Source of the DNA: Branchiostoma lanceolatum
Lineage: Eukaryota > Chordata > Leptocardii > Amphioxiformes > Branchiostomatidae
Assembly (NCBI RefSeq): GCF_035083965.1
Contig: NC_089738.1
Span: forward strand, 14,658,734 to 14,722,733
DNA: 64,000 nucleotides
Reading direction: 5' to 3'
Below the pieces are notes generated by a model. It made no database searches. It worked only from the letters and a program-made list of their open reading frames with translations, and was not told where the DNA came from. Shown here one piece after another: positions 24 to 63,955 of this stretch; position 1 is the stretch's first letter; each line of letters opens with the position of its first letter. The translations under genes and the position numbers were made by a program.

Positions 24-1967
24 GCGGAGTTGCGACCTATGTCACAGTATCGCTTACCGACTGGCCGTACACCGCTGCCATGAGGGACCCACTGTCTGAA
101 GACTCCCGGAGACTCTCTCAGTACCTGGAGCCACCTGTAAGACAATGTTATTCCAATTAGGCATCTTGCAATCATTCACTGATTATCAGAATTTCTCAGT
201 GGCTAAGGGGATTTATCCTTGGCAGTCAGAAGTATAAGGGCTTTTGTGCAGATAGAACTTGATATGTATTGACCTACATATACGTATACATCAGTACAAT
301 ATGAACACAAGGCAAGAAGTGCCCTAAACAACCCAAACAACAACACCAACATACAAGTAGCCTGGCACATTTCGTCTCTTACATTGTTTGTCTTCTATTA
401 CAACAATCTTTCGTAAGTAGTGAGAGAGAGGGACCAATTATAGCAATCTGATCAGGAAGTTTATCGTCTGTTCCTTTTCTTACAGACCGTCGCCTTGCTC
501 AGGAACTTCAATGGTTTTCGCTATTCATTTGCTGTTGACTACAAACCCCTGTAAGACAACCCTTTAAGTATTTATCTAATAACTTTCAGAATCTGTATTA
601 AGACTTATTTTTATTGTAAATTGTAACATCAAGCCACCGGGTTACATAAATCCACCACTCTGAAAAACAGTGGGTTTGAGAGATCTCTAGTGCAGCACCC
701 CCCAGCTACGCACAGTTTAGATATACAAGAGTGCATTATACTGGAGGGCATTGTGTTAGAGGTCTGTTTGGACGTATCTTTTCAGGGTGGCAGAATTATG
801 TACCCCGGTGGAATTATGTTGAAGCCCTGTTCCTGGGGTTGACATTGAAGCCCTGTTCCTGGGGTTGAAATTGAAGCCCTGTTCCTGGGGTTGAAATTGA
901 AGCCCTGTTCCTGGGGTTGAAATTGAAGCCCTGTTCCTGGGGTTGAAATTGAAGCCCTGTTCCTGGGGTTGAAATTGAAGCCCTGTTCCTGGGGTTGAAA
1001 TTGAAGCCCTGTTCCTGGGGTTGAAATTGAAGCCCTGTTCCTGGGGTTGAAATTGAAGCCCTGTTCCTGGGGTTGAAATTGAAGCCCTGTTCCTGGGGTT
1101 GAAATTGAAGCCCTGTTCCTGGGGTTGAAATTGAAGCCCTGTTCCTGGGGTTGAAATTGAAGCCCTGTTCCTGGGGTTGAAATTGAAGCCCTGTTCCTGG
1201 GGTTGAAATTGAAGCCCTGTTCCTGGGGTTGAAATTGAAGCCCTGTTCCTGGGCTTCAAGATGAAGCCCTGTTCCTTGGGTTGAAATTGAAGCCCTGTTC
1301 CTTGGGTTGAAATTGAAGCCCTGTTCCTGGGGTTGAAATTGAAGCCCTGTTCCTGGGGTTGAAATTGAAGCCCTGTTCCTGGGGTTGAAATTGAAGCCCT
1401 GTTCCTGGGCTTCAAGATGAAGCCCTGTTCCTTGGGTTGAAATTGAAGCCCTGTTCCTGGGGTTGAAATTGAAGCCCTGTTCCTGGGGTTGAAATTGAAG
1501 CCCTGTTCCTGGGGTTGAAATTGAAGCCCTGTTCCTGGGCTTCAAGATGAAGCCCTGTTCCTTGGGTTGAAATTGAAGCCCTGTTCCTGGGGTTGAAATT
1601 GAAGCCCTGTTCCTTGGGTTGAAATTGAAGCCCTGTTCCTGGGGTTGAAATTGAAGCCCTGTTCCTGGGGTTCAAATTGAAGCCATGTTCCTGGGGTTCA
1701 AATTGAAGGCCTGGTCCTGGGCTTCAAATTGAAGGCCTGGTCCTGGAAGATTACACTGTATCGGTCACAGAAGATTTCATTTTTTAGTGCATTTCTGTAG
1801 CTGTCTCAAGCACAAAATTGTTAAGGTTTGTTGTTTTGTTTTTATTTTGTTGTTGTTTAGGGATTCCAGCAGTGGAAGTGGCACCCTGGCTGTATGTAGC
1901 TTTGACCTGGCTCATTACACTAACTACAGCCTCCTCAAGTCTTTCGTCGAGAATGCTGACCCTAGGG
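24..1967 (+). CDS. SEA-like module, C-terminal SEA of triad 0 (exons 1-3)
   Basis: Exons 24-136, 486-550 and 1861-1967 with phases 1-0, 0-2 and 2-1, about window residues 1-95. The first exon reads [20 protein letters not shown], the typical SEA opening (beta strand, aromatic, acidic-Pro-Leu-Ser). The third exon has a hydrophobic strand after a Gly-Ser stretch ([13 protein letters not shown]). The second intron is enlarged by a 26-bp minisatellite. The exon-3 donor at 1968 is chosen because it alone gives the phase needed by the next exon. Family knowledge: SEA domains occur in mucins and matrix proteins and some self-cleave at G-SVVV; that motif is not clean here. Confidence 0.7.
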
Positions 1968-4900
1968 GTGGGTTCACTTACAAGAGACATTGTCATGATG
2001 CTGTCTGCTTTCATGTAGTATGATTAAGATGCTGTGTGTGCAGGGCTCGAAATTCGTTTTTTGGAAAAAGGTGCACTGGTGCGCCCAACTAAAAAAATTA
2101 GGTGCACAGAAAGAATTTTGGGTGTTCTACATAAGATAAAGTTGAATGTCAGCAAAACATATTTAAGTTTAACGCTCTTGAGAGCTTCAATCTGTAATTC
2201 TAAAGATTATTTCAAACAAGTAGTACATCAACTTAAGAACAACAAAAGGTTTTTCTGATACTTACATAAAAAATCAAGAATATTCTGTATACAAGTGCAC
2301 AATACCTTCACCCTATAGCATACAAAAATATCTAGGTGCAATGGTGCACCCACAGTCAAGAATTAGGTGCACACAGGTGCACATGCACCCAGTATTTCGA
2401 GCCCTGGTGTGTATGTGTGTCTGTATGTGCGTGTGTCTGTGTGTGCATGTATCACCGTCACTGTGTATGTGTGTGTTTTAGGTTATGTCCTTGTGTTAGG
2501 GAGCAGGAATTTCTGTTTGTGTCAAAACATTTAGGCTTTCCTGGCTAGTTTTGTCCTTAACTCACAAACAATCACAAAAAAAAACTAATCCTTATAATAC
2601 CCTAATCTTACAGCCACATACGAGGGCCCCACCTGGAATCAGAACATCACCTGGGCATCTGTGGCATCTGGCTTTGGAGATCCAAGCCTTTCTGTCGACG
2701 GTGACCTTTCAACTTACTGGTACCCCGAAGGCCCGACTTCAGGAGACGCCTACATTGTCTTTGATCTTCAGGCTGTGTACACCCTGTCTGCATTCAGCAT
2801 TGCTGCTACAGGAAACGGCACCAACGACCCCATCGGCTTTAAACTCCAGGTCTCAGCCTCGCCATGGCCATACGACTGGCAGGACGTTGGTAGCTTCACA
2901 GGGATACAAGGTATTACAGTCTTGTCAAAGGAGTATATCTTCCAAGAAATGAATTTTGATTGGGCTAGTGCATCTTTCCTCAGCATATTGCATCGCAACC
3001 ATGAACAGCTGACAACATAAGACAACATAAGATGTATTCTTCCAATAACTAAACAAGAATGATAATCTGGGGAATGAACTTGCCAACAGCAGGGAGACTG
3101 TAAAAGAAGTTTTTACATTCTGCTTATCTGCTGTGTTTGTTGTTATTGATTTCAATCAATTCCCTATGAAATAAACTGTAGTGCAGAAAATGATATTGAA
3201 ACATGCAGTAGGTTAGGGATCTTGAATTGACGGTACCTTTCCACGGTGCTGATTCTGGTGTTGTGCATAGTAAGGTCTGTTATAGTCCGTCTACATAACT
3301 TCATGAGGTACTTTTTGTCACTTGATTTTCTTATAGATCTGGTTCTCTAAGTACAGGTCATCCATTTCCAAGGTATACATAGGTTACAATGTAAAAGTGT
3401 ATCTGTCTGTATCTTGTGTTGAAATTTGCAGGCACGGACCAGCAGCAGATCTTAGCTGGTTTCATTGAGACATCGCAGTACTGGCGCCTGTACATCACAG
3501 CGACCGGAGGTGGTGGCAAACCAGCTGTTTCTGAGATCCAGTTCTTTGGACAAGAAGGTACTGACCAACTTGGGGGGAAAATTGCTTTCCATTCAAGCAT
3601 TAGAAACAGATCTGTTATGTATGGCTTTATTACAGCAAAGGAAGCCAAGATGATAAAACTATATACTATAGTCAGCTTCTTATGCACTACTTTGAATGCT
3701 GGCTAAATAAAATGATTATGATTTATTAAGTAAATGAAACTGAACTATGAATCACTGTCACTTACAAAAGGTTGTGAATGTTGTCTGAAACGTCTGACCG
3801 TTTATCGTCCAGTTGCTTGAGTAACTTTTGTATTGTGTATCTTATTACCTGGTTGTCTAACCTATATCAATGAGCTGTATGTAGCCAAAAGTCATAACTT
3901 AATCTGCAGACATTGCTTGCATTGTATGTACCTTGGTTCACAGTGTAACAACTACAGAATGGCAAATCTAAGTTTTTTACCATACTGAAACATCATGAAA
4001 ACTTCATCCAATGCGTACTGTCTCTCCCTGGTGTTTAATCTGCAGCTATTACAACTCGGTACACATCCCTGGAGCTGCCCCTCCCAGCAGGGTACTGGCC
4101 TCAGGTCTTCACCAGGGACTCTCCCCAGGCTGTCAGTGTTGCTCAGGAGGTTGAGAATGGGGTGAGTAATACTCCTAGTAGTTAAGTACTGTAGTAGTAG
4201 TGGTAGTAGTCTACTGTGTATTCTGTTGCTGCAGTGGTCTTAACACCCTGCAGCTGCAATCAGTCTTTCTTCAAATCTCTCCACCTTGCCCAATTCATCG
4301 CAAGCTTCTTTAGCTCCCATAGTTTTCTTTGTGACCACAACGGTCCTAGTCCTCATTCTTTCGGGTCAGCCCTCAATAGACCTAAAGTAGTAGTAGTAGT
4401 GTCATACTCTACAGAGTTGGAGCAAATACAAAGTTCTTTTTACTGTATTTTTTGTCAATTAGTATCACCATACACCCCAGGTGACTGCAAAAGTGCCATG
4501 GTTTTTTGGAAGTAAAAGTAAACTGGTTGAAACGTTGTTTTTAATGGTTGTCTTTAATGTAGCCCCACTTTTATGCTGAAATTCCATCTTTTATGCACAA
4601 ATTCCATCTTTCAACCTATGGATTAAGCTTTCAGTTATAGCCAAGATATTTGTTGGTAGACAATACTGCCATCCCAAGATGTGTATTATCTGTTTATTAA
4701 GGATGTTTCTTATCATTTTGCAGGTGGTTGACCTCTTAGTGAATGATAGCCTGTTCGTGCATGCAATCCAGGCTCTTTGGATCAGGCCTGGGTGAGTATT
4801 CAATGAATTAAGCTGGTGTGTTACGCCTAATGGTGGTTATACCGGCTATATAGATACAGATACAGAATCAATTGATTATTCATTTATCGATTATCATTGG

Positions 4901-29987: not shown

Positions 29988-30053
<66 letters not shown>

Positions 30054-30090
30054 TGTGTGTGTACATATATGTATGTGTATATACATATTT

Positions 30091-30129
<39 letters not shown>

Positions 30130-60100: not shown

Positions 60101-63100
60101 CTCAGAGCTATTTTTCGCCTCTGTCAACTGTCTCGTCTTATTCGTTCCTCTTGTGAAACTTCGCATCGCCTTTTCTGCGTAGCGCATGCGCATGCGCAGC
60201 GCAACTTGTACACTCTTTAGACTGCATTGCGACAGTGCTTCATTTTTCATGGCTAATATGTTGCTGGTACGAGCGTGAAGGTGAGATTCATAATTGTCAC
60301 TACAAGACGTTCCTGAAACTTAATGTTTCAGATAATGTTGTGTGACAGAATATTCTTCAGGGTTGCGCGTTTAGGGCCCTGTCACACTTGTGCGAATATT
60401 CAAGTGCGCGTGAGTTGCGCATTAACATTTTTTTTGTTTAAAGGTAAGGTTTGCGGGGAAAAAGTTGTTTTCTACTTTGGCCCACCGTTGTGCAGCCTAG
60501 TGATCGAACCTAAGAAATCACTTATTAGGCTGGAAACTTAACCTAAACTAAAAACATGTTGATACGCAACCCATGCGGGCGTGTATATACACACAAGTGT
60601 GACAGGGGCTTTAGCAAAGGTGCGCATCTGCTGCGATGCTGGTTGAGATAACATTGCAACTGTACACTTGCTGATCATGACCCTCATGGGATTGCTGGAG
60701 AATGAGGCAACAGCTGATTGACATTTCTATACGTTGCCACTACAAAGGACAAGGTTACGTCAATGGTATTGTACTGCATACTCACACTCACACATTTCAC
60801 TGTTGCGGAAGGTACAAATCATCTAATCCATCGTTTGCTCGCTGCATATGAGCGTGCATGAGGGTATGCTTTGGTTAGGCAATTGCTCGGTTATGAACTG
60901 AAGGCTATTTCCCTAAAAGAAAAAGGGGCCTAGATGGCAAGCAAAGTGGTCATAAGGCATGCAAAATGACGTTGGCTGGGTGTAGTTGACTCCGATGTGT
61001 TTGTCTGGAGCAACCCTTCTCTGGATGATCTGACAGTTCCACTCTTTTATATGTGCTTGTTTCAGTTGTTTTCTATTTTTGTGTCCCATTCATATCAATC
61101 CTTGTCCGAAAGACTGATGACTTACAGCCGTAAACTGTAGTCACCGTGATTAATTTGCATTGTTCTGGAAGGCAACCCTTCTACTGCCTTCTTGACTAAA
61201 TGATTTTGATGCTTGGTTGATGATTCGTCATCTCTCTTCGCGCTTCATGATTAAAAACATATGCGAAATAGCCGGCAGGCGGGCGCTCGCTCTTCAGTGA
61301 AGTTACAAATGCCACGGGTGGCCCACATAGTCACCAAAATGCAAGGTCATGCAGTGAACGGAATCCCTATCCGCATACGTTCAATGTTAGAATTCATCGA
61401 TGTTATAATCACAATTCTTGCCCGAACAGCTATCAACCTTCTTTGGAAACATCCCACAACCCGTCACGCAGCTTGTGTCATTATCTCCTGGGTAAGCAAA
61501 TATTCATTTTTTTTAATGTAACAAATGTATAAAGACTAACACACAAAGTTTGTCGACGTTTATTGTCATAGTAGTAAACATGAAGACACCGATTTAAGTC
61601 TGGTGTATTGGACGTGAGTTAATTGCTTACTGATCTTCATAATTCGTCGTTCAAACATGATTTGCTATCACATTTCAGACCAAGAAGCTCAGTTTCAGCA
61701 GTTTACCAAATGGCACTGCAGTTATGGCAGCAAACAGTCGTAACAAGACTATATTCAAATGTTCCAACTGATTTTGGAGACGTCACTGTCGACTCCACGT
61801 CAACAGGTCTTACGTCTGAGCGTAAGTATTTATTTAATACCCACCCAAATGTAGTCCCTGTAGATTTCCCAGGCGGCAATTAGCAGAAGCTACATTTTGA
61901 GAATCGACGGCTCATAAAACGTTATCAGTGTATGCACAGAGTTCAGATGAACATATGAAAACCGTACGCGCATGTTCACGAGTAAGTCGCGCACACATTT
62001 CAGTGGTAACTATATGTATATATATGCATACAACTCAACATCATAAATCCTACGACTACAGATAGGGCAAAGAACTTTCCTTATCAAACAGACTTTCAAC
62101 TGCAATTTAAGTTAAATCGTTTTTTTTAACATAATGCTAAGCTGTTATCATGACGGATCAAGTGTTTTTGTGTCTTTTATGGAGCAGCGACTGCCAGCAT
62201 CTTTATCAGGCTAAGCCTGAATTTTACCTACAGCGTGGAATATCGGGTTCTTGGATCTTCTACTTATAACAACTTGGTGTCCCATATTGAATATCAGGTA
62301 AACGGCCAGTTTGAACCTTGACATAATATTGGTAGTAGCTTGAATATGTATGTATATATTGTATGTTAATACTCCAGGAAGAGTAGTGATGTATTTATAC
62401 AGTCACTAATGGAGATCTTTAAAATACTTAACAACAATAAACAAGAATATTGTTTCAACTTGTATCTGTTTTTGAGTGCTTTACGCAAGTATACTTAGTC
62501 CTCAAGTTTCTAAATTTATTCATTAAAGATATATCTTTACGCATGATACTGACTTATGATGCAGACTCCTGATACTGTGTTATTTGTAGCTTCTCAACGA
62601 GTTCTCTACAAGCCCAGGGTTTCTAGTGTTCCTGCGCGTGACACGGATCCTTCCGGAGTAAGTTACTTTAATATGTGCAATGGCTGTCTCATGTGATAAT
62701 GATGATGTTGATTATATAAAAGTAACAGAAAAGAAAATATATATAATTTTCGACGCCATTATCGACTTTTAAGTTTTTCTGTACCTGTTAAAGAAAATAT
62801 AATCCGTGCTTTATGTGACAGTTCGACGGCAGCAACTACTACAGTCGACGTTGAGGTAGTGACCACGACATCCGAAGTATCGAACGTCCAAACGAGCCTG
62901 ACCAACATTACCGCAGCCGGCCGGACACTTGGTGGTGCATCTATCATCACTTCACAAGTGGCGTTATCAGGTAAACTCTGCAATCGATTCTGCTTCGACA
63001 ATGGCTTTAAGAAAAGGCAGGGCAAATGTAAGGCAAAGACAAGTGCACCAACGGTTGCTTGTCTTTCTTCGATTTTTTATTAGCATATTCAGAAGATGCC

Positions 63101-63955
63101 CATTGATTCTCTCGACTCTCTACTTCAGCTCCAGTTTGCAGCGTCCGAGTGGATCTTGTCTTCGTCTTGGACGGTACTGGTAGCGTGGGAGCCGAGAACT
63201 TTGGGAGGATGAAGACCTTTGTGCAGAAGATGATCAGCGACTTTGACATTGGGCGGGAGGCAACTCGCATTGGTGTGGTCGTCTACTCCAGCCGAGCAGA
63301 GCTGGTCATCAGCTTGGACGCCTTTGATGATCAAGGATCGCTGGAAGATGCGGTCGCTGACATCGCATATCCCGGCGGTTACACTCGGACAGGGGCAGCC
63401 ATCGACTACACCACAAAGTTTGCCTTCTCTACCAGAAACGGTGCCCGGGAAGGAGTGAAGAGAGTAGCCATCATCTTGACCGATGGCATATCATATGATG
63501 ATCCTTCGGAGCCGGCTCAGAGTATGCGCCAAGCGGCCATCATCACCTACGCCGTGGGCATCGGAAGCAATCTTGACAGCAATCAGCTGGACGTTATTGC
63601 CGGAGTGCCAGAGAACCTGGTGGTACTGGACGACTTCAGCAAGCTGGACAACCTGCGAACCATCCTGCCCAACCAAGTCTGTGACGGTCAGTATGAAGTC
63701 GGAAGTGCCTATAGCTTGGACTCTGAAAAGAAGGTTTCGAAGGGTGGATCTTTTCTCGGCAACGGTCGTCTTCATGGAAGGAAAGGGTAGTCGTTGCGAT
63801 AGATGTTTGACCGTGTTTGTGTCCTTCTTTCCACAGCCGCTACCAGTGAACAGATTCTCATCAGAATCGTCATCACATCAAGGCGGTTCGATGTTTCTCT
63901 GTTGAACGGCAACTCTACAGCATTCCAGAGCGTGTTTTACCAAATCAACCGTGCC
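24..63955 (+). CDS. giant modular extracellular protein, partial at both ends (109 exons)
   Basis: A single coding chain is followed through 109 exons, each bounded by AG and GT (one GC donor) and each phase-compatible with its neighbours. The product fragment is about 5,975 residues made only of extracellular modules: SEA-like, von Willebrand factor A, F5/8 type C, IgGFc-binding type, Asp-rich DNDCDG motif and EGF. The invariant unit is SEA/vWFA/SEA, repeated 11 times. No initiator exon, signal peptide, membrane span or stop exon lies in the window, so both ends are missing. Many Asn-X-Ser/Thr sequons fit secretion. Families suggest adhesion, matrix or mucus function; the specific role is unknown. 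Because all module joints are phase 1, adjacent genes of the same family could in principle be strung together here, but no internal start or stop was seen. No gene symbol is recognised. Confidence 0.85.
551..1860 (+). other. intron 2, expanded by minisatellite
   Basis: This 1.3 kb intron separates the second and third exons of the first SEA module. Apart from the 26-bp tandem array (about 821-1746) it holds unremarkable AT-rich sequence. The open frames on the - strand across the array are a by-product of a stop-free repeat unit. Confidence 0.8.
821..1746. repeat. 26-bp minisatellite, about 35 copies
   Basis: The unit carries GAAGCCCTGTTCCTGGGG followed by TTGAAATT; successive starts of GTTCCTGGGG lie 26 bases apart (for example 855 and 881). 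Most units are identical. A variant pair with GGGCTTCAAGATGAAG and then TTCCTTGGG recurs near 1251, 1407 and 1537, a higher-order pattern spaced by multiples of 26. Units near 1675-1746 are decayed (AAGGCCTGGTCCTGG), as expected at the edge of an array. Confidence 0.95.
2041..2406. mobile_element. hAT-like MITE (366 bp, non-autonomous)
   Basis: Perfect 13-bp terminal inverted repeats: CAGGGCTCGAAAT at 2041-2053 and ATTTCGAGCCCTG at 2394-2406. The CAGGG terminus is typical of hAT elements. Subterminal regions on both sides repeat GGTGCAC and GGTGCACCC motifs. It sits in a GT-rich tract, so the expected 8-bp target duplication cannot be judged (left flank TGTGTGTG, right flank GTGTGTAT). There is no transposase frame, so it would depend on a partner elsewhere. 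It lies in the intron between SEA-0 and F5/8C-1. Confidence 0.7.
2614..3557 (+). CDS. F5/8 type C (discoidin-like) module 1 (exons 4-5)
   Basis: Exons 2614-2910 and 3432-3557, both phase 1-1, about residues 95-236. Visible hallmarks are an opening [26 protein letters not shown], a lipid- or glycan-binding type loop region, and the closing [12 protein letters not shown] and EIQFFGQEG. The paired cysteines that close classical F5/8C domains are absent, as in all four copies here. Family knowledge: such jelly-roll modules bind lipids, glycans or proteins at cell surfaces. It sits between SEA-0 and triad 1. Confidence 0.82.
4046..5357 (+). CDS. SEA-like module, N-terminal SEA of triad 1 (exons 6-8)
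   Basis: Exons 4046-4161 (phase 1-0), 4724-4791 (0-2) and 5212-5357 (2-1), residues about 236-346. The fold pattern shows as [20 protein letters not shown], an amphipathic helix region, then [15 protein letters not shown] and a C-terminal helix. NSIIV stands where self-cleaving SEA domains have GSVVV, so the Gly is missing. The exon pattern matches every other SEA in the gene, which supports the call even where identity is low. Confidence 0.68.
4810..4868. repeat. dispersed repeat fragment
   Basis: AGCTGGTGTGTTACGCC, then GGTTATACCGGCTATA and a short GATACA run. A close second copy lies at 33817-33868 and a more diverged one near 5509-5577. The recurrence inside one window shows it is interspersed; I recall similar sequence from amphioxus, but the family is not identified. 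Confidence 0.6.
5829..7600 (+). CDS. von Willebrand factor A module 1 (exons 9-11), degenerate MIDAS
   Basis: Exons 5829-6030 (phase 1-2), 6849-6981 (2-0) and 7372-7600 (0-1), residues about 346-534. The start reads [20 protein letters not shown] and the middle [20 protein letters not shown], both diagnostic of vWFA. MIDAS residues are only partly kept: DGSST for DxSx[10 protein letters not shown] where a Thr is expected, and IAEEG in place of TDG. Metal-dependent ligand binding is therefore doubtful for this copy (inference). Its first two introns hold dispersed repeats. Confidence 0.9.
6045..6228. repeat. dispersed repeat, GCGG-rich, MITE-like
   Basis: The block begins TACTGTAAATGCAG and contains several GCGGTG, CCACCGCG and CGCGAA motifs in both orientations, ending near CGCGAAATAAAATC. 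The inverted motif arrangement and abrupt composition change against the flanking intron suggest an old inserted element. No target duplication is clear. Confidence 0.45.
6487..6680 (+). repeat. dispersed repeat family R, copy 1
   Basis: Starts at CTCCATGAAAAATGGAG, itself a small hairpin, followed by a TCTG/GTGT-rich stretch, then GTCAGCATAACTCAAGA, TGATGGATTACAATGATAT and TTTTGGGCCCCCTGG. Copy 2 at 10970-11160 matches through all these blocks in order. It lies in a vWFA-1 intron and has no coding capacity. Confidence 0.75.
7670..7734. repeat. near-perfect 32-bp hairpin with 1-base loop
   Basis: Arms 7670-7701 and 7703-7734 are reverse complements with one mismatch and a single intervening base. 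The core is CTGGAATTGTTACGATGTG opposite CACATCGTAACAATTCCAG. It lies 70 bases downstream of the vWFA-1 exon donor. No flanking direct repeat is evident, so a transposon is not proven. Confidence 0.85.
7863..8315 (+). CDS. SEA-like module, C-terminal SEA of triad 1 (exons 12-13)
   Basis: Only two exons: 7863-7993 (phase 1-0) and 8156-8315 (0-1), residues about 534-631. The linker [16 protein letters not shown] is unusual for the series. The second exon fuses what are separate second and third exons elsewhere ([20 protein letters not shown]) and is shorter than their usual sum, so the phase-2 intron appears lost and the C-terminal part trimmed. This is the most divergent SEA-like unit; the call rests on position, phase and weak pattern. 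Confidence 0.55.
8782..9572 (+). CDS. F5/8 type C module 2 (exons 14-15)
   Basis: Exons 8782-9014 (phase 1-0) and 9380-9572 (0-1), residues about 631-773. Key features are [55 protein letters not shown] and the closing [11 protein letters not shown]. The intron position inside the module differs from F5/8C-1. Sequons are present (NNTA, NDT). It joins triad 1 to triad 2. Confidence 0.83.
9900..10685 (+). CDS. SEA-like module, N-terminal SEA of triad 2 (exons 16-18)
   Basis: Exons 9900-10009 (1-0), 10146-10210 (0-2) and 10519-10685 (2-1), residues about 773-887. It shows [20 protein letters not shown], then [14 protein letters not shown] and a strand [16 protein letters not shown]. The third exon is longer than usual by about 20 bases. 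There is no GSVVV-type cleavage site. Confidence 0.66.
10970..11160 (+). repeat. dispersed repeat family R, copy 2
   Basis: Same block order as the copy at 6487-6680: CTCCATGAAAAATGGAG, a TCTG-rich stretch, GTCAGCATAACTCAAGAG, TGATGGATTACAATGATAT and GGTCGATTTTGGGCCCCC. Two copies 4.5 kb apart in different introns show an interspersed family rather than a local duplication. Confidence 0.75.
11291..11970. repeat. 10-bp minisatellite (TGTAAACTTT)n
   Basis: About 67 copies of TGTAAACTTT over 680 bases. Variants replace the TTT with ATT, GTT or GTGAAC forms, and a 40-bp higher-order block (GTGAACTTTTGTAAACGTTT and following) repeats near 11318 and 11358. Occasional 9-bp units slip the register. 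The long - strand open frames here are repeat artefacts. Confidence 0.95.
12553..14126 (+). CDS. von Willebrand factor A module 2 (exons 19-21), MIDAS lost
   Basis: Exons 12553-12761 (1-0), 13220-13336 (0-0) and 13898-14126 (0-1), residues about 887-1072. vWFA pattern: [52 protein letters not shown] and [14 protein letters not shown]. The first MIDAS motif is D-G-A-T-A, lacking both serines, and the third is VTSGAS in place of TDG. A Ser/Gly-rich insertion ([14 protein letters not shown]) enlarges the last exon. Ion-dependent binding is unlikely (inference). Confidence 0.88.
13628..13700. repeat. possible dispersed repeat in vWFA-2 intron
   Basis: The segment GGGGAGCTTTCGAGACGAAC, followed by CTGTCTCTTCGTCAACCC, is CpG-rich against its AT-rich surroundings and has a GACGAA/TTCGTC inverted pair. 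I associate similar sequence with amphioxus interspersed repeats, but only one copy is present here, so support is weak. Confidence 0.3.
14253..15666 (+). CDS. SEA-like module, C-terminal SEA of triad 2 (exons 22-24), with GSV motif
   Basis: Exons 14253-14362 (1-0), 14805-14869 (0-2) and 15548-15666 (2-1), residues about 1072-1170. The opening is [20 protein letters not shown]. The third exon begins [13 protein letters not shown], the best match in the window to the G-S-V-x-V self-cleavage site of SEA domains. The C-terminal part is short and Gly/Ser-rich. It precedes the first IgGFc cassette. Confidence 0.72.
14941..15402 (+). promoter_or_regulatory. cluster of four RE1/NRSE-like sequences in an intron
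   Basis: Four same-strand sites resemble the vertebrate REST operator, whose first 17 bases are TTCAGCACCACGGACAG. They start at 14941 (18 of 21 matches), 15270 (15), 15310 (15) and 15382 (17), by my hand count. 15270 and 15310 are 40 bases apart and may be units of an old tandem repeat. Whether the organism has a REST-like factor, and whether these are bound, is unknown. Confidence 0.4.
16214..18634 (+). CDS. IgGFc-binding-protein-type N-terminal domain 1 (exons 25-28)
   Basis: Exons 16214-16395 (1-0), 16849-17226 (0-0), 17499-18012 (0-1) and 18461-18634 (1-1), residues about 1170-1586. Diagnostic blocks in order: [105 protein letters not shown] and the terminal ESYGYPAGM. This is the full-length arrangement of the FCGBP N-terminal domain family, found in secreted mucus and immune-associated proteins. 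It sits between triad 2 and the Asp-rich motif. Confidence 0.85.
19016..19149 (+). CDS. Asp-rich DNDCDG metal-binding motif module 1 (exon 29)
   Basis: One phase 1-0 exon, residues about 1586-1630. It reads [15 protein letters not shown] and then [14 protein letters not shown], two successive Asp-rich loops. The first is the classic DG-x-DNDCDG form of the MopE-type putative metal-binding motif; the pattern resembles calcium loops of thrombospondin type 3 repeats. Calcium binding is inferred. It links IgGFc-1 to EGF-1, and the same linker recurs at 32328. Confidence 0.78.
19485..19599 (+). CDS. EGF-like module 1 (exon 30)
   Basis: One phase 0-1 exon, residues about 1630-1669, opening [12 protein letters not shown] and closing [13 protein letters not shown]. 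All six EGF cysteines are present with standard spacing. The calcium-binding N-terminal Asp-x-Asp/Asn is absent. The preceding Asp-rich exon and this exon together form one symmetric phase 1-1 cassette. Confidence 0.9.
20057..21345 (+). CDS. F5/8 type C module 3 (exons 31-33)
   Basis: Exons 20057-20241 (1-0), 20650-20830 (0-1) and 21244-21345 (1-1), residues about 1669-1825. Features: [62 protein letters not shown] and [10 protein letters not shown]. The middle exon ends at a GC donor (20831), the only choice that keeps frame with the next exon. Both sequons NLT and NAS lie in the ligand-side loop. Confidence 0.84.
20831..20832 (+). other. GC splice donor of a GC-AG intron
   Basis: The exon end GAGTTTAGAG is followed by GCAAGT, the normal donor context with GC in place of GT. 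The nearest GT, four bases further at 20835, would leave phase 2 and break the frame with the next exon, whose first two bases complete a Gly codon. The intron runs 20831-21243. Confidence 0.8.
21661..22526 (+). CDS. SEA-like module, N-terminal SEA of triad 3 (exons 34-36)
   Basis: Exons 21661-21770 (1-0), 21939-22015 (0-2) and 22369-22526 (2-1), residues about 1825-1940. The pattern is clear: [18 protein letters not shown], then [11 protein letters not shown], then [18 protein letters not shown] and a closing strand GSLTVTGYQ. The second exon is 77 bases, longer than the usual 62-68, adding a CC pair (GLCCQIYS). Confidence 0.72.
22993..24457 (+). CDS. von Willebrand factor A module 3 (exons 37-39)
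   Basis: Exons 22993-23132 (1-0), 23474-23668 (0-0) and 24229-24457 (0-1), residues about 1940-2128. It reads [54 protein letters not shown] and [14 protein letters not shown]. The DxSxS motif (DGSDS) and a Thr are kept, but the third motif is LSTG, lacking the Asp. The last exon is 229 bases, the same length as in modules 1 and 2. Confidence 0.92.
23788..24000. repeat. possible short inverted-repeat element
   Basis: Bounded by TACTGTAA at the left and TTACAGTA at the right, with AT-rich interior containing several TTAGC/GCTAA motifs. The left end resembles the start of the repeat at 6045. Eight-base ends alone are weak evidence. Confidence 0.35.
24458..26811 (+). other. largest intron of the window, filled by a transposable element
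   Basis: A 2.35 kb phase-1 intron between vWFA-3 and its C-terminal SEA. About 1.98 kb of it is the terminal-inverted-repeat element at 24617-26591. The remaining flanks show no exon. Confidence 0.8.
24617..26591. mobile_element. about 2 kb non-autonomous DNA transposon, family not identified
   Basis: Perfect 23-bp terminal inverted repeats: GTACTCTCATCTCCCAAATA plus AAC at 24617-24639, and the reverse complement at 26569-26591. Inside both ends a GTAYGTTTATT motif recurs (GGGGGTATGTTTATTCC twice at the right, GGTACGTTTATT at the left). No frame longer than about 90 residues is present, so it has no transposase. The GTAC at each end is palindromic, so the target duplication (TA or GTAC) cannot be fixed. 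Confidence 0.75.
26812..27900 (+). CDS. SEA-like module, C-terminal SEA of triad 3 (exons 40-42)
   Basis: Exons 26812-26924 (1-0), 27372-27436 (0-2) and 27767-27900 (2-1), residues about 2128-2232. Opening [18 protein letters not shown], middle [11 protein letters not shown], third exon [23 protein letters not shown] is a partial match to the SEA cleavage motif. It precedes the second IgGFc cassette just as the GSV-bearing SEA precedes the first. Confidence 0.7.
28413..31802 (+). CDS. IgGFc-binding-protein-type N-terminal domain 2 (exons 43-48)
   Basis: Exons 28413-28555, 28841-29252, 29670-29832, 30285-30492, 30957-31086 and 31629-31802, residues about 2232-2642. Blocks match copy 1: [47 protein letters not shown] then [35 protein letters not shown] and [17 protein letters not shown]. 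It has two extra introns and lacks the terminal YGYPAG, which is replaced by STYVVPG. The phases still open and close at 1. Confidence 0.84.
29439..29521. repeat. imperfect foldback in IgGFc-2 intron
   Basis: Arms GTATTCCAAAAGGATATCAT (from 29439) and ATGATACCCTGTTGGAATAC (to 29521) pair over about 22 bases with three differences by my reading, around a 38-40 base centre. It is too short to name an element. Confidence 0.5.
29989..30142. repeat. (GT)n microsatellite
   Basis: Long nearly pure GT runs at about 29989-30050 and 30090-30140, broken by an AT-rich TACATATATGTATG block. It is intronic, in IgGFc-2, and the CVCV and HTHT frames over it are artefacts. Confidence 0.97.
32328..32491 (+). 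CDS. Asp-rich DNDCDG metal-binding motif module 2 (exon 49)
   Basis: One phase 1-0 exon, residues about 2642-2696. It reads [15 protein letters not shown] and then [15 protein letters not shown], closely parallel to module 1, with a longer N-terminal lead ([14 protein letters not shown]). The same position between IgGFc and EGF shows the cassette was duplicated as a block. Confidence 0.78.
32697..32796 (+). CDS. EGF-like module 2 (exon 50), sixth cysteine missing
   Basis: One phase 0-1 exon, residues about 2696-2730. It reads [13 protein letters not shown], then [16 protein letters not shown]. Cysteines 1 to 5 are in place; where EGF-1 ends GTFC this copy has GFSGD, so the last disulfide cannot form unless a partner lies outside the exon. 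The donor GTAAGC directly follows, so the Cys is not hidden by a misplaced splice. Confidence 0.86.
33166..33186 (+). promoter_or_regulatory. isolated RE1/NRSE-like sequence
   Basis: TTCAGCACCAAGGACAG followed by ATGC matches 17 of 21 bases of the vertebrate RE1 consensus by hand count, with a perfect left half-site. A more decayed relative (TCTAGTACCAAGGATAG) lies at 32972. It sits in the intron before F5/8C-4. The TTACAACA shared upstream of this site and of the one at 15310 hints at a common repeat origin. Confidence 0.35.
33448..34195 (+). CDS. F5/8 type C module 4 (exons 51-52)
   Basis: Exons 33448-33632 (1-0) and 33952-34195 (0-1), residues about 2730-2873. Features: [61 protein letters not shown] and [10 protein letters not shown]. 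Two cysteines occur, but not at the classical terminal positions. It follows the EGF-2 exon exactly as F5/8C-3 follows EGF-1. Confidence 0.84.
33817..33868. repeat. dispersed repeat fragment, second copy
   Basis: GCTGGTGTGTTACGCCGAAG and GGTTATACCGGCTATAG match the copy at 4810-4868 closely. It lies within the F5/8C-4 intron. Confidence 0.6.
34377..34723. repeat. 175-bp intronic tandem duplication reaching a splice acceptor
   Basis: Two copies begin AGTTGCATTACCTGTACAG at 34381 and 34556 and share TCATCCACTGAGCTA and CACTGCTTC/CACTGCCTC in order. The second copy ends at the working acceptor of the next SEA exon (34722-34723); the first ends in a similar GAGTTGTTAG that is apparently not used. 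Confidence 0.8.
34724..35786 (+). CDS. SEA-like module, N-terminal SEA of triad 4 (exons 53-55)
   Basis: Exons 34724-34827 (1-0), 35040-35113 (0-2) and 35638-35786 (2-1), residues about 2873-2982. Opening [19 protein letters not shown], middle [11 protein letters not shown], then [18 protein letters not shown] and the end [12 protein letters not shown]. No cleavage motif. The three-exon phase pattern is the standard one. Confidence 0.68.
36091..36948 (+). CDS. von Willebrand factor A module 4 (exons 56-57)
   Basis: Exons 36091-36409 (1-2) and 36734-36948 (2-1), residues about 2982-3160, 534 bases in all and the shortest vWFA. It reads [55 protein letters not shown] and [13 protein letters not shown]. 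First motif DGTVS and third VTDG are kept in conservative form, but the Thr-bearing GGGT loop is replaced by [12 protein letters not shown]. Only one intron remains. Confidence 0.88.
37270..38195 (+). CDS. SEA-like module, C-terminal SEA of triad 4 (exons 58-60)
   Basis: Exons 37270-37379 (1-0), 37821-37885 (0-2) and 38047-38195 (2-1), residues about 3160-3268. Opening [20 protein letters not shown] is textbook SEA; then [11 protein letters not shown] and [19 protein letters not shown] with a closing SYSFDTATI. It is followed directly by another SEA, the first direct triad-triad joint. Confidence 0.75.
38504..39411 (+). CDS. SEA-like module, N-terminal SEA of triad 5 (exons 61-63)
   Basis: Exons 38504-38613 (1-0), 38858-38922 (0-2) and 39257-39411 (2-1), residues about 3268-3378. 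Opening [19 protein letters not shown], middle [11 protein letters not shown], then [18 protein letters not shown]. The ATTTxVDF strand recurs in later N-terminal SEAs (43877, 58548, 62822) and separates them from the post-vWFA type. Confidence 0.72.
39057..39273. repeat. 111-bp tandem duplication spanning a splice acceptor
   Basis: GCCAAATTGGTGAAGAGGAA occurs at 39075 and 39186, followed in each by CCTTTTTTCACC and TCAATGTACAAC. Copy 2 ends in the functional TTTTCAG and exon start CACCATGGCTACAA; copy 1 has the decayed CTTTCCAAATGGCTATAAG at the same place. Confidence 0.82.
39854..41141 (+). CDS. von Willebrand factor A module 5 (exons 64-66), complete MIDAS
   Basis: Exons 39854-39992 (1-2), 40376-40537 (2-2) and 40885-41141 (2-1), residues about 3378-3564, 558 coding bases. 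[64 protein letters not shown] and [14 protein letters not shown]. DxSxS, the Thr in GGGT and TDG are all present, so this copy should bind a divalent ion (family knowledge). It is the closest spliced relative of the intronless 558-base modules that follow. Confidence 0.94.
41760..42435 (+). CDS. SEA-like module, C-terminal SEA of triad 5 (exons 67-69)
   Basis: Exons 41760-41875 (1-0), 42101-42162 (0-2) and 42293-42435 (2-1), residues about 3564-3671. Opening [19 protein letters not shown], middle [11 protein letters not shown], then [15 protein letters not shown] and closing NMTVTGATF. This is the most compact SEA in genomic terms (under 700 bases). Confidence 0.7.
42784..44010 (+). CDS. SEA-like module, N-terminal SEA of triad 6 (exons 70-72)
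   Basis: Exons 42784-42893 (1-0), 43300-43358 (0-2) and 43877-44010 (2-1), residues about 3671-3772. Opening [19 protein letters not shown], middle [16 protein letters not shown], then [19 protein letters not shown]. The second exon is 59 bases, the shortest of the class. Confidence 0.7.
44473..45030 (+). CDS. von Willebrand factor A module 6 (exon 73), intronless, complete MIDAS
   Basis: A single 558-base phase 1-1 exon, residues about 3772-3958. [67 protein letters not shown] and [20 protein letters not shown]. All three MIDAS motifs are canonical. Upstream in-frame bases from 44328 are intron, as the polypyrimidine tract and CAACAG acceptor at 44461-44472 show. First of three near-identical copies. 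Confidence 0.97.
45215..45262 (+). pseudogene. relic of a vWFA exon end inside intron
   Basis: GACAATTGTAGGCACTCTGG then CAACTTTGGGCAGTTACAGGATCT matches, with small gaps, the exon stretch GGCAATTGGAGGCACTCC to CAACTTTGGGCAGCTACAGGATCT of the preceding vWFA exon. It is a decayed partial duplicate and is not in the spliced frame. The same relic lies in the unit-3 intron. Confidence 0.65.
45340..46223 (+). CDS. SEA-like module, C-terminal SEA of triad 6 (exons 74-76)
   Basis: Exons 45340-45434 (1-0), 45699-45763 (0-2) and 46090-46223 (2-1), residues about 3958-4056. [53 protein letters not shown] and [13 protein letters not shown]. The first exon is 95 bases, 15 shorter than usual, and carries two Cys (PCSS, FACLQ). 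The three copies in the triplication are nearly the same. Confidence 0.72.
46466..47523 (+). CDS. SEA-like module, N-terminal SEA of triad 7 (exons 77-79)
   Basis: Exons 46466-46575 (1-0), 46905-46966 (0-2) and 47378-47523 (2-1), residues about 4056-4162. [54 protein letters not shown] and a closing [15 protein letters not shown] and NVT sequons are conserved in all three copies. Confidence 0.72.
47169..47238 (-). repeat. tRNA-like SINE relic, copy 1
   Basis: Read on the - strand the segment ends GAGTTTGAATCCCGG, a B-box-like sequence, with GGTCTTAGAGTA upstream in A-box position. Related copies lie at 50585-50640 and 54049-54094, carried along by the triplication. It is too short and degenerate to be a tRNA gene. 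Confidence 0.3.
47932..48489 (+). CDS. von Willebrand factor A module 7 (exon 80), intronless, complete MIDAS
   Basis: A single 558-base exon, residues about 4162-4348, second copy of the triplication. It differs from module 6 at few residues: MEVVF for [14 protein letters not shown] for [16 protein letters not shown] for DMDELLA and PDNIFG for PDNVFG. DGSGS, GGGTATG and LLTDG are intact. Same CAACAG acceptor context. Confidence 0.97.
48755..49663 (+). CDS. SEA-like module, C-terminal SEA of triad 7 (exons 81-83)
   Basis: Exons 48755-48849, 49150-49214 and 49530-49663, residues about 4348-4446, same lengths (95, 65, 134) as in units 1 and 3. [20 protein letters not shown] shows the most changes of the three copies in the first exon, in line with the divergent intron on its left (48490-48754). 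Confidence 0.72.
49906..50913 (+). CDS. SEA-like module, N-terminal SEA of triad 8 (exons 84-86)
   Basis: Exons 49906-50015, 50347-50408 and 50768-50913, residues about 4446-4552. Almost identical to 46466-47523, with FTYWTNVF for FAYWTNVF and [10 protein letters not shown] for [10 protein letters not shown]. Flanking introns are nearly the same as in unit 1. Confidence 0.72.
51316..51873 (+). CDS. von Willebrand factor A module 8 (exon 87), intronless, complete MIDAS
   Basis: A single 558-base exon, residues about 4552-4738, third copy. Distinguishing residues are [19 protein letters not shown] (Gly for Arg) and QYSHFVM (His for Ser). The three MIDAS motifs are canonical. The acceptor has GCAACAG followed by TG in place of TC, changing the joint residue from Ser to Val. 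Confidence 0.97.
52058..52106 (+). pseudogene. relic of a vWFA exon end inside intron, unit 3 copy
   Basis: The same decayed exon fragment as at 45215-45262 (ACAATTGTAGGCACTCTGG, CAACTTTGGGCAGTTACAGG). In unit 2 the corresponding intron (48490-48754) is shorter and lacks it. Confidence 0.6.
52183..53075 (+). CDS. SEA-like module, C-terminal SEA of triad 8 (exons 88-90)
   Basis: Exons 52183-52277, 52597-52661 and 52942-53075, residues about 4738-4836. The first exon encodes the same residues as unit 1 ([20 protein letters not shown]). The second has LNLAGLSYQ for LNQAGLSYQ and the third [14 protein letters not shown]. The intron between exons 88 and 89 carries a new inverted duplication. Confidence 0.72.
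52370..52454. repeat. 41-bp perfect inverted duplication, 3-base loop
   Basis: Left arm 52370-52410 begins TAGAAATTTTGTCAAGCATA; right arm 52414-52454 is its exact reverse complement. The matching intron of unit 1 (45529 onward) has only the left arm, then continues TAATATTGTATC as this copy does after the right arm. The extra arm is therefore a recent insertion in unit 3. Confidence 0.95.
53358..54386 (+). CDS. SEA-like module, N-terminal SEA of triad 9 (exons 91-93)
   Basis: Exons 53358-53467, 53806-53867 and 54241-54386, residues about 4836-4942. [19 protein letters not shown] and [18 protein letters not shown] match the two earlier copies. The donor of exon 92 is GTACTA, weaker than GTAACT in the sister copies. 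It is the last SEA of the triplicated block. Confidence 0.72.
54946..55503 (+). CDS. von Willebrand factor A module 9 (exon 94), intronless, third MIDAS Asp lost
   Basis: A single 558-base exon, residues about 4942-5128. [69 protein letters not shown] and [18 protein letters not shown] and the Thr are kept, but LTGG replaces LTDG, removing a residue that helps hold the ion. Clearly more diverged than modules 6-8. Confidence 0.95.
55860..57162 (+). CDS. SEA-like module, C-terminal SEA of triad 9 (exons 95-97)
   Basis: Exons 55860-55978 (1-0), 56430-56491 (0-2) and 57020-57162 (2-1), residues about 5128-5236. [32 protein letters not shown], then [24 protein letters not shown] aligns with the self-cleavage site but has Asn for Gly. 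The donor of exon 97 lies after GGGC (57163); the phase supports it. Confidence 0.72.
57230..57530 (+). mobile_element. tRNA-related SINE
   Basis: An A-box-like TATAGTAATGGGTAGAG at 57245 and a B-box-like GTGAGTTTGATCCC at 57287 are spaced as in tRNA-derived promoters. A body of about 230 bases follows, ending in GGAGGACTTTTTTT. The tRNA fold itself is not maintained, so it is a SINE and not a tRNA gene. It lies in the intron between the two SEAs. Confidence 0.6.
57710..58693 (+). CDS. SEA-like module, N-terminal SEA of triad 10 (exons 98-100)
   Basis: Exons 57710-57819 (1-0), 58043-58110 (0-2) and 58548-58693 (2-1), residues about 5236-5344. [54 protein letters not shown]. It carries the ATTxTVDV strand typical of pre-vWFA SEAs. 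Confidence 0.72.
58945..59508 (+). CDS. von Willebrand factor A module 10 (exon 101), MIDAS lost
   Basis: A single 564-base exon, residues about 5344-5532. [73 protein letters not shown] and [13 protein letters not shown]. The leading Asp is Val (VGTES), TDG is THG and the usual IGIGS is VDIES. This fold should no longer coordinate an ion as standard vWFA does (inference). Confidence 0.94.
59951..61821 (+). CDS. SEA-like module, C-terminal SEA of triad 10 (exons 102-104)
   Basis: Exons 59951-60069 (1-0), 61430-61491 (0-2) and 61679-61821 (2-1), residues about 5532-5640. [29 protein letters not shown] and [18 protein letters not shown]. The middle exon was found by phase, length (62) and acceptor/donor match after a 1.36 kb intron that has been invaded by a MITE. 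Confidence 0.7.
60182..60197. promoter_or_regulatory. two overlapping NRF-1-type palindromes
   Basis: GCGCATGCGCATGCGC contains GCGCATGCGC at 60182 and again at 60188. This is the core of the NRF-1 recognition sequence known from bilaterian promoters. No transcription start signal is visible nearby, so function is speculative. Confidence 0.35.
60374..60610. mobile_element. Harbinger/Tourist-like MITE (237 bp)
   Basis: Terminal inverted repeats GGGCCCTGTCACACTTGTG at the left and ACACAAGTGTGACAGGGGCT at the right share a perfect CCCTGTCACACTTGTG core. They are flanked by TTA on both sides (60371-60373 and 60611-60613), the 3-base target duplication of PIF/Harbinger elements. No coding capacity. 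Confidence 0.7.
62188..62970 (+). CDS. SEA-like module, N-terminal SEA of triad 11 (exons 105-107)
   Basis: Exons 62188-62297 (1-0), 62590-62657 (0-2) and 62822-62970 (2-1), residues about 5640-5749. [54 protein letters not shown] and [14 protein letters not shown]. Standard exon pattern and the pre-v[10 protein letters not shown] strand. Confidence 0.72.
63129..63686 (+). CDS. von Willebrand factor A module 11 (exon 108), intronless
   Basis: A single 558-base exon, residues about 5749-5935. [71 protein letters not shown] and [18 protein letters not shown] is a conservative form of DxSxS, the Thr loop is present as GGYTRTG, and LTDG is intact, so ion binding is plausible. The exon is CpG-richer than modules 1-5. 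Confidence 0.96.
63837..63955 (+). CDS. SEA-like module, first exon of C-terminal SEA of triad 11 (exon 109), cut by window edge
   Basis: One 119-base phase 1-0 exon, residues about 5935-5975. [20 protein letters not shown] and [15 protein letters not shown] match the first exon of the C-terminal SEAs of triads 9 and 10 (both also 119 bases). The two partner exons lie beyond the window, so the gene continues. Confidence 0.75.

What the first reader, a model, noticed from the sequence alone, without database searches (positions are those of the whole stretch)
24..63955. Giant mosaic protein built from a repeated SEA/vWFA/SEA triad
Reading the exons in order shows every complete vWFA (10 of 11) flanked by a SEA-like module on both sides, and the eleventh is cut at its C-terminal SEA. 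Triads are linked directly, by F5/8C, or by IgGFc + DNDCDG + EGF + F5/8C. I do not know a described protein with this architecture. Roughly 6,000 residues are visible and neither end is reached. If SEA domains pair or self-associate, a vWFA clamped between two SEAs could be a spaced, stiff adhesive filament (inference).
Basis: partly seen in the sequence, partly recalled or inferred. Interest (0 to 1): 0.85.

Follow-up and report, generated by a model that had tools for sequence, protein, structure and literature searches.

The report
Giant SEA-VWA-SEA repeat protein gene
This stretch of animal DNA holds part of one gene for a giant, probably extracellular protein built mostly by repeating one three-part unit: a putative binding module with a putative sugar-carrying spacer on each side.

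Summary
A gene finder written here, curated by hand, gives 109 coding exons at 24-63955 (+): 17,951 nt, 5,984 codons, no in-frame stop. All 11 VWA modules have a SEA-like module before and after; the last is cut by the window end. Nine non-redundant VWAs pass Pfam. SEA rests on weak-to-moderate profile matches; single modules miss Pfam's cut-off.

New here: (1) SEAs before and after a VWA form two lineages (18 of 21 by leave-one-out), and the four linker blocks lie only between triads. (2) VWAs carry 0 N-glycosylation sequons against 12.6 expected; SEAs 35 against 24.7. (3) VWA4-11 have terminal cysteines; the full MIDAS is in VWA5-8. (4) VWA6-8 units are recent copies under purifying selection. 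(5) The IgGFc-DNDCDG block recurs in two giant bacterial proteins.

Likeliest: a multivalent adhesive or matrix protein. Closed VWAs suggest pendant heads rather than a stiff filament. The parts are known; the architecture was not found in print by my searches.

The parts
24..1967 (+). SEA01 (3 exons); groups with the SEA-C lineage, so probably the end of an upstream triad
2614..3557 (+). F5/8 type C domain 1 (2 exons)
   Evidence: Pfam PF00754 E 1.3e-10
4046..5357 (+). SEA02, SEA-N of triad 1 (3 exons)
5829..7600 (+). VWA1 (3 exons); MIDAS Thr and Asp lost; no terminal Cys pair
   Evidence: Pfam VWA 2e-30
7863..8315 (+). SEA03, SEA-C position of triad 1 (2 exons); weakest SEA call, mainly by position
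   Evidence: at most 2.6 bits
8782..9572 (+). F5/8 type C domain 2
   Evidence: Pfam 6.8e-7
9900..10685 (+). SEA04, SEA-N of triad 2
12553..14126 (+). VWA2 (3 exons); DxSxS and Asp lost
14253..15666 (+). SEA05, SEA-C of triad 2; keeps a G-S-V turn
   Evidence: scores better with the SEA-N profile
16214..18634 (+). IgGFc_binding domain 1
   Evidence: Pfam PF17517 E 1e-62
19016..19149 (+). DNDCDG (MopE-like putative metal-binding) motif 1
   Evidence: PF11617 E 2.2e-4, below cut-off
19485..19599 (+). EGF-like domain 1
   Evidence: Pfam PF00008 7.6e-6
20057..21345 (+). F5/8 type C domain 3
   Evidence: Pfam 3.8e-4, below cut-off
21661..22526 (+). SEA06, SEA-N of triad 3
   Evidence: 28.7 bits to SEA-N profile
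22993..24457 (+). VWA3 (3 exons); DxSxS kept, Asp lost
26812..27900 (+). SEA07, SEA-C of triad 3
28413..31802 (+). IgGFc_binding domain 2 (start of exon 30237-30492 uncertain)
   Evidence: Pfam PF17517 E 1.5e-48
32328..32491 (+). DNDCDG motif 2
   Evidence: PF11617 E 0.057, below cut-off; aligned with copy 1
32697..32787 (+). EGF-like domain 2
   Evidence: Pfam 2.9e-6
33448..34195 (+). F5/8 type C domain 4
   Evidence: Pfam 1.3e-6
34724..35786 (+). SEA08, SEA-N of triad 4
   Evidence: 24.1 bits to SEA-N profile
36091..36948 (+). VWA4 (2 exons); terminal Cys pair, MIDAS incomplete
37270..38195 (+). SEA09, SEA-C of triad 4
   Evidence: scores better with the SEA-N profile
38504..39411 (+). SEA10, SEA-N of triad 5
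39854..41141 (+). VWA5 (3 exons); full MIDAS, terminal Cys pair
41760..42435 (+). SEA11, SEA-C of triad 5
   Evidence: 30.5 bits to SEA-C profile
42784..44010 (+). SEA12, SEA-N of triad 6
44473..45030 (+). VWA6 (1 exon); full MIDAS, terminal Cys pair
   Evidence: Pfam VWA 1.3e-45
45340..46223 (+). SEA13, SEA-C of triad 6
46466..47523 (+). SEA14, SEA-N of triad 7
47932..48489 (+). VWA7 (1 exon); full MIDAS; recent copy of the VWA6 type
48755..49663 (+). SEA15, SEA-C of triad 7
49906..50913 (+). SEA16, SEA-N of triad 8
51316..51873 (+). VWA8 (1 exon); full MIDAS; recent copy of the VWA6 type
52183..53075 (+). SEA17, SEA-C of triad 8
53358..54386 (+). SEA18, SEA-N of triad 9
54946..55503 (+). VWA9 (1 exon); DxSxS and Thr kept, Asp lost
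55860..57162 (+). SEA19, SEA-C of triad 9
57710..58693 (+). SEA20, SEA-N of triad 10
   Evidence: 42.5 bits to SEA-N profile
58945..59508 (+). VWA10 (1 exon); DxSxS and Asp lost
59951..61821 (+). SEA21, SEA-C of triad 10
   Evidence: 38.3 bits to SEA-C profile
62188..62970 (+). SEA22, SEA-N of triad 11
63129..63686 (+). VWA11 (1 exon); near-canonical MIDAS (DGTGS), terminal Cys pair
63837..63955 (+). SEA23, first exon only, SEA-C of triad 11; cut by the window end
   Evidence: 12.0 bits to SEA-C profile against -0.5 to SEA-N; no hit
44172..54410 (+). recent tandem triplication of the VWA/SEA-C/SEA-N unit, introns included

Best explanation
The window holds the middle of one animal gene for a giant, very probably extracellular mosaic protein (at least 5,984 residues; both ends lie outside). 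Its repeating unit is SEA-N/VWA/SEA-C.

Shown by computation: the exon model, the order, two SEA lineages, linkers only between triads, recent tandem growth of the array under purifying selection, sequon-free VWAs with sequon-bearing SEAs, and terminal cysteines in VWA4-11.

Inferred: it works as a multivalent adhesive or matrix (possibly mucus) protein. VWA heads bind ligands, with metal at VWA5-8 and perhaps VWA11. The SEA pairs, probably glycosylated, act as spacers holding each head away from its neighbours. F5/8C and IgGFc modules add glycan or surface binding in the N-terminal half. Because a disulfide-closed VWA has adjacent termini, SEA-N and SEA-C of one triad probably lie side by side under a protruding VWA.
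For: Gene model and controls. Pfam: VWA in 9 of 9 non-redundant copies; F5/8C in 3 of 4, IgGFc in 2 of 2 and EGF in 2 of 2 above cut-off. SEA by profile and by profile-profile comparison with three SEA segments: probability 84.9 for all 22 modules, 63.4 for SEA-N, 39.8 for SEA-C, against 0.1 and 0.2 for the VWA and F5/8C controls. Two SEA lineages: one label change on the tree against 7.2 in shuffles, 0 of 500 as low, support 77/91; leave-one-out 18 of 21; the cut SEA23 scores as SEA-C. Sequons: VWA 0 against 12.6 expected, 0 of 2000 shuffles as low; SEA 35 against 24.7; F5/8C 10 against 3.5. dN 0.021-0.030 against dS 0.094-0.129 between VWA6-8 units. Top PDB chains for the VWA profile: collagen VI alpha-3, mussel proximal thread matrix protein 1, other collagen VI chains, von Willebrand factor. 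VWA termini geometry: PMC3919171, passages.
Against: No expression, protein or structural evidence exists here; the genome is not held and the species is unknown. No signal peptide or membrane anchor can be judged because both ends are missing. Six of 11 VWAs lack part of the MIDAS, so many heads may be structural. The sequon gap in VWAs could be inherited from one sequon-free ancestor; IgGFc shows no enrichment (4 against 5.7). Single SEA modules fail Pfam's cut-off (2 of 22 match at all, best E 0.011), the SEA-C profile alone is not significant against the PDB (E 0.17), and SEA03 is weak. Three SEA-C modules score better as SEA-N. The disulfide is inferred from cysteine positions, and collagen VI alpha-4 to alpha-6 show that such VWAs also occur in plain arrays (PMC3919171).
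Confidence: 0.6

Rival explanations
1. Linear stiff filament: SEA and VWA domains follow each other end to end and SEA-SEA contacts stiffen the chain.
For: Triads 4-11 are joined directly with no predicted spacer exons. The top PDB chain for the VWA profile, collagen VI alpha-3 (whole-chain scores favour chains with many VWAs), is described as beads on a string (PMC3919171, passages).
Against: The linear arrangement is described as an exception that needs a C-terminal extension; VWA4-11 here carry the terminal cysteine pair of closed domains. Nothing tested here shows stiffness or SEA self-association.
Confidence: 0.25
2. Recognition molecule of innate immunity: VWA, F5/8C and IgGFc modules bind microbial glycans, and tandem turnover of triads varies the array between individuals.
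For: VWA6-8 units are recent copies whose introns are 61-99.6% identical in patches, the pattern of conversion or unequal exchange. The IgGFc-DNDCDG block is shared with bacterial proteins.
Against: The recent repeats evolve under purifying, not diversifying, selection (dN/dS about 0.23). No population or expression data.
Confidence: 0.2
3. Force- or protease-sensitive sheath: SEA modules cleave themselves, as in MUC1 (recalled), so that parts of the chain shed under load.
For: SEA01, SEA05 and SEA07 keep a G-S at or near the expected turn (GSGTL, GSVLA, GSAVF).
Against: Only 3 of 22 complete modules have it there. The motif and its place are recalled, not from a call.
Confidence: 0.08
4. Not one functional gene: several neighbouring genes, a pseudogene, or an assembly artefact that repeats one unit.
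For: No transcript is available, and three units are near copies. The gene finder forbids stops, so an interrupted exon would have been trimmed or skipped.
Against: 5,984 codons read open, phases fit at all 108 introns, no intron over 2,354 bp. The copies differ by 3.8-5.2% in coding DNA and by up to 39% in single introns, with dN/dS about 0.23, so they look neither like duplicated haplotypes nor like decay. The other triads are far diverged.
Confidence: 0.04

Closest known systems
Collagen VI alpha-3 N-terminal VWA array
   Same: Many tandem extracellular VWA domains; best PDB chain for the VWA profile (9han_C, 10 stretches).
   Different: No collagen repeat in view (longest Gly-X-Y run 5); a pair of SEA modules separates consecutive VWAs in triads 4-11; VWA4-11 have the terminal cysteine pair, whereas alpha-3 N5 uses a C-terminal extension (PMC3919171).
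Mussel proximal thread matrix protein 1 (PTMP1)
   Same: Invertebrate extracellular protein with more than one VWA; second PDB chain (4cn8).
   Different: 454-residue chain with two VWA stretches, against a giant with SEA spacers.
SEA proteins (MUC16, ADGRF1, transmembrane serine protease)
   Same: SEA profile matches; MUC16 carries tandem SEA repeats (recalled).
   Different: Here SEAs alternate in two lineages around VWAs and mostly lack the G-S turn.
FCGBP / zonadhesin-like mucus proteins
   Same: IgGFc_binding domain, extracellular mosaic (recalled).
   Different: No VWD, C8 or TIL domain among the Pfam hits of the pieces scanned; the IgGFc domain is part of a linker between triads.
Giant bacterial proteins with IgGFc-DNDCDG (L001, 3,983 aa; L036/L040, open frame of 2,628 aa)
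   Same: Same IgGFc then DNDCDG order, about 30% identical over the IgGFc domain; L001 also has F5/8C.
   Different: Bacterial and intron-free; L001 has RHS and PKD repeats and neither VWA nor SEA among its Pfam hits (L036/L040 not scanned with Pfam).

Membership tests
VWA domain (PF00092) | Pfam match | tested here: met
   9 of 9 non-redundant copies match at E<=0.001; the two shown in full score 106.7 and 156.1 bits against a cut-off of 23.8
VWA domain (PF00092) | complete MIDAS (DxSxS, Thr, Asp) | tested here: inconclusive
   complete in 4 of 11 (VWA5-8), near-canonical in VWA11, incomplete in 6, read by eye from the alignment; the motif is recalled; not needed for membership
SEA domain (PF01390) | Pfam gathering score for single modules | tested here: not met
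   2 of 22 modules match, best E 0.011; so filed as SEA-like
SEA domain (PF01390) | profile similarity to SEA domains of known structure | tested here: met
   top 4 of 8 PDB sequences (three proteins; that they are SEA domains, and 1ivz MUC16, is recalled), E 2.7e-4, 0.012, 0.019, 0.078; SEA-N profile best E 0.0035, top 3 of 6; SEA-C top hit only 0.17; hhalign 84.9 against 0.1 and 0.2 for controls
SEA domain (PF01390) | SEA fold | not testable with these tools
Autoproteolytic SEA | G-S at the cleavage turn | tested here: not met
   G-S at the turn in 3 of 22 modules (SEA01, SEA05, SEA07)
F5/8 type C (PF00754) | Pfam gathering score | tested here: met
   3 of 4 above 28.2 bits; copy 3 at 21.0 is below
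IgGFc_binding (PF17517) | Pfam gathering score | tested here: met
   2 of 2, 212.6 and 166.1 bits against 25.6
EGF (PF00008) | Pfam gathering score | tested here: met
   2 of 2, 26.5 and 27.9 bits against 21.5
Cu-binding_MopE (PF11617) | Pfam gathering score | tested here: not met
   21.9 and 14.1 bits against 27
Collagen VI | triple-helical Gly-X-Y region | tested here: not met
   longest Gly-X-Y run in the 5,984 residues is 5; both ends of the protein are missing
FCGBP / gel-forming mucin | VWD-C8-TIL units (recalled) | tested here: not met
   not among the Pfam hits of the pieces scanned; both ends are missing

The most novel reading that the evidence does not exclude
A class of giant animal adhesive protein whose chain is a comb: two diverged SEA lineages (SEA-N and SEA-C) pair with each other at the base of each disulfide-closed VWA and turn it into a glycan-free pendant head at fixed intervals. 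The array lengthens by tandem duplication of whole triads, and insertions are tolerated only between triads. The IgGFc-DNDCDG linker came by exchange with giant bacterial surface proteins.
Probability: 0.3. Interest if true: 0.7.

Novelty: new variant of a known kind. Interest (0 to 1): 0.52.

Why it matters
It would be a clear case of a composite unit (SEA-N/VWA/SEA-C), not a single domain, acting as the currency of growth in a giant matrix or adhesive protein. Two SEA lineages fixed by side make a concrete prediction of a heterotypic SEA pair that can be tested on one triad of about 400 residues. The IgGFc-DNDCDG block shared with two bacterial giants is a lead on exchange of surface modules between bacteria and animals.

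Tried and rejected
Rejected: bacterial or viral origin (109-exon spliced gene; also no tRNA and no Rfam family at its gathering score). Several separate genes (introns short, phases fit). Other genes in the window were looked for only in part: 10 of the 39 ORFs listed were scanned; only the satellite ORF 817-1671(-) has hits below E 0.001, to unrelated families, as expected of a 26-bp repeat.

Led nowhere: Pfam on single SEA modules; IgGFc against the PDB, best E 0.6; the VWA tree, unresolved except for VWA6-8 and, less surely, VWA5 with them (88/91). No architecture like this appears in the listings of the paper searches that bear on it (one search listed 12 of 556, one of 2). Searches asked about IgGFc (48 listed 10 of 65). 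Passages seen: limpet shell PMC3374290, a protein with several SEA domains and other proteins with VWA, none with both in those passages; echinoderm matrix review PMC10381214 (12 of 34 places), SEA in agrin and syndecan; limpet adhesion PMC7333891, 0 occurrences of 'SEA domain' and of 'VWA'. I guessed amphioxus from memory and could not test it.

Results against my reading: SEA03, SEA05 and SEA09 score better with the SEA-N profile; the lineage split has 77/91 support, the tree program warns of long branches meeting (SEA03, SEA07), and near copies make labels look clustered; the SEA-C profile alone is not significant against the PDB; in the HMMER ranking the two DNDCDG-bearing bacterial proteins are 1st and 4th, not 1st and 2nd as by tblastn.
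Full report
WHAT IS THERE. I compared all open frames of the window with each other, trained a splice- and codon-based gene finder on the diverged repeats, added homology between modules and then curated by hand. The result is 109 exons at 24-63955 on the + strand, 17,951 coding bases and 5,984 codons without a stop. Introns run from 126 to 2,354 bp, median 366. Three long introns are lengthened by repeats: a 26-bp satellite at 819-1746, a 10-bp satellite at 11289-11970, and an element with 28-bp inverted termini at 24617-26591. Of the 44 module starts, 42 are in phase 1 and the two EGF exons in phase 0, as is usual for shuffled extracellular modules (recalled). The last exon ends at a GT donor and the first begins at an acceptor, so the gene continues on both sides.

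IS IT MORE THAN CHANCE. Without homology bonus the finder scores 2087 on the + strand, 346 on the - strand and 92-125 on 10 simulated sequences; its tables were trained on the + strand model, which favours +. A VWA profile built from six single-exon copies hits 19 stretches (E<0.5), all on +, and recovers five VWAs that were not in its training set. A SEA profile built from 12 modules hits 50 stretches (E<1), all on +. Between the three recent units the coding sequence is 94.8-96.2% identical with dN 0.021-0.030 and dS 0.094-0.129, while introns are 75-88% identical overall. That is selection on the protein.

THE MODULES. Nine of nine non-redundant VWAs match Pfam. F5/8C passes in three of four copies, IgGFc in two of two and EGF in two of two; the DNDCDG motifs resemble the MopE metal-binding motif below its cut-off. 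SEA is the delicate call: two of 22 single modules match Pfam SEA, the better at E 0.011. The profile of all 22 against the PDB returns eight sequences, of which the first four are ADGRF1 (2.7e-4 and 0.012), a transmembrane protease (0.019) and 1ivz (0.078), all SEA domains as far as I recall; the other four are the bacterial ring protein PrgK. The SEA-N profile alone finds ADGRF1 and the protease first (best 0.0035); the SEA-C profile has ADGRF1 first but only at 0.17. Profile-profile comparison with those three SEA segments gives 84.9 (all), 63.4 (SEA-N) and 39.8 (SEA-C) against 0.1 and 0.2 for the VWA and F5/8C controls; SEA-N and SEA-C match each other at 95.5. Of 22 complete modules 21 have three exons of about 110, 65 and 140 nt in phases 1-0-2; SEA03 has two and is weak.

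THE TRIAD IS A UNIT. Each of the 11 VWAs has a SEA-like module immediately before and after, the last only in its first exon. The tree of 22 SEA modules separates those before a VWA from those after it with one change; shuffled labels need 7.2 on average and none of 500 is as low, though support is 77/91, long branches are flagged and near copies help. Leaving each module and its near copies out, 18 of 21 are assigned to the right side; SEA03, SEA05 and SEA09 are not. SEA01, whose upstream neighbour is outside the window, scores as SEA-C (20.3 against 7.3 bits), which predicts a further triad upstream; the cut SEA23 also scores as SEA-C (12.0 against -0.5 bits). All four inserted blocks lie between SEA-C and SEA-N: 4 of 11 such junctions, 0 of 22 SEA/VWA junctions (order).

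TWO HALVES. VWA1-3 sit among the linkers, lack the terminal cysteine pair and have incomplete MIDAS. VWA4-11 all have the pair (8 of 8); the full MIDAS, read by eye, is in VWA5-8 and nearly in VWA11, and six VWAs lack part of it. VWA6-11 have no internal introns, VWA1-5 one or two. VWA6-8 with their SEAs are recent tandem copies whose introns are 61 to 99.6% identical in patches, the pattern of conversion or unequal exchange. The copies most recently multiplied are thus ones with a complete metal site.

GLYCAN PATTERN. The 11 VWAs contain no N-glycosylation sequon in 2,043 residues against 12.6 expected from shuffles (0 of 2000 as low); the 22 SEAs contain 35 against 24.7, the four F5/8C domains 10 against 3.5, and the two IgGFc domains 4 against 5.7. 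The copies are related, so these are not independent events, but the pattern fits bare binding heads on glycosylated spacers.

HOW IT MAY WORK. The modules are of extracellular types, so a secreted or surface protein is the natural reading (knowledge of the families; no signal peptide is in view). The top PDB chains for the VWA profile are collagen VI alpha-3 and mussel PTMP1, then other collagen VI chains and von Willebrand factor; whole-chain scores favour chains with several VWAs. VWA domains usually have adjacent termini, often closed by a disulfide; collagen VI alpha-3 N5 has an extension that makes beads on a string possible, while most N-terminal VWAs of alpha-4 to alpha-6 have the cysteine pair and are still in arrays (PMC3919171, abstract and passages). 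With the pair in VWA4-11, the SEA-N and SEA-C of one triad would emerge side by side, with the VWA as a protruding head. This is an inference, and it differs from the stiff linear filament proposed first.

A BACTERIAL LINK. IgGFc_binding is found in 111 of 187 genomes of the phylum reached through L001, a contig titled Deltaproteobacteria MAG, and in none of 14 control genomes. With the window's IgGFc1 alone as query, 102 of 187 genomes match. Of 29 loci fetched there, 28 give a tblastn match, and DNDCDG follows the domain directly in two; these rank first and second by tblastn bits (168 and 135, the third has 134), and the same two lead among 39 loci, but in the HMMER ranking they are first and fourth. 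One is a 3,983-residue protein with F5/8C, PKD, IgGFc, DNDCDG and RHS repeats. So the block is shared as a block; the direction of exchange is not determined, and no other animal sequence could be compared.

NOVELTY. Of ten full-text searches, the eight that bear on the architecture show no such protein in their listings. No general protein database was available and the species is unknown, so unannotated relatives may well exist. Giant extracellular mosaics are a known kind (recalled); this repeating unit appears to be a new variant.

Noticed in passing
16214-19149 and 28413-32491; L001, L036, L040, L043: The IgGFc-DNDCDG block occurs in the same order in two giant bacterial proteins (2 of 28 loci), which are among the bacterial IgGFc domains closest to the animal ones: ranks 1 and 2 by tblastn, 1 and 4 by HMMER.
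   Followed up: partly
24617-26591: Intron element with 28-bp inverted termini, 96% complementary, 1,919 bp apart: probably a DNA transposon remnant.
   Followed up: partly
819-1746 and 11289-11970: Intronic satellites, 26-bp unit x 35.7 and 10-bp unit x 68.6; the first keeps long reading frames open on the - strand by periodicity alone.
   Followed up: partly
44172-54410: Three recent tandem units with patchy intron identity (61-99.6%), suggesting conversion or unequal exchange.
   Followed up: yes
VWA exons across the window: No N-glycosylation sequon in any of 11 VWAs, while SEA and F5/8C modules are enriched.
   Followed up: yes
VWA1-5 against VWA6-11: VWA1-5 have one or two internal introns, VWA6-11 none: one intron-loss step before the array expanded is the simple reading.
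   Followed up: no
6485-6685 and 10968-11170: Pair of similar intronic repeats, open in several frames on both strands, probably a dispersed element.
   Followed up: no
SEA profile A1: After three SEA proteins, the profile's remaining four PDB hits are the bacterial secretion ring protein PrgK, at E 0.1 to 0.67.
   Followed up: no
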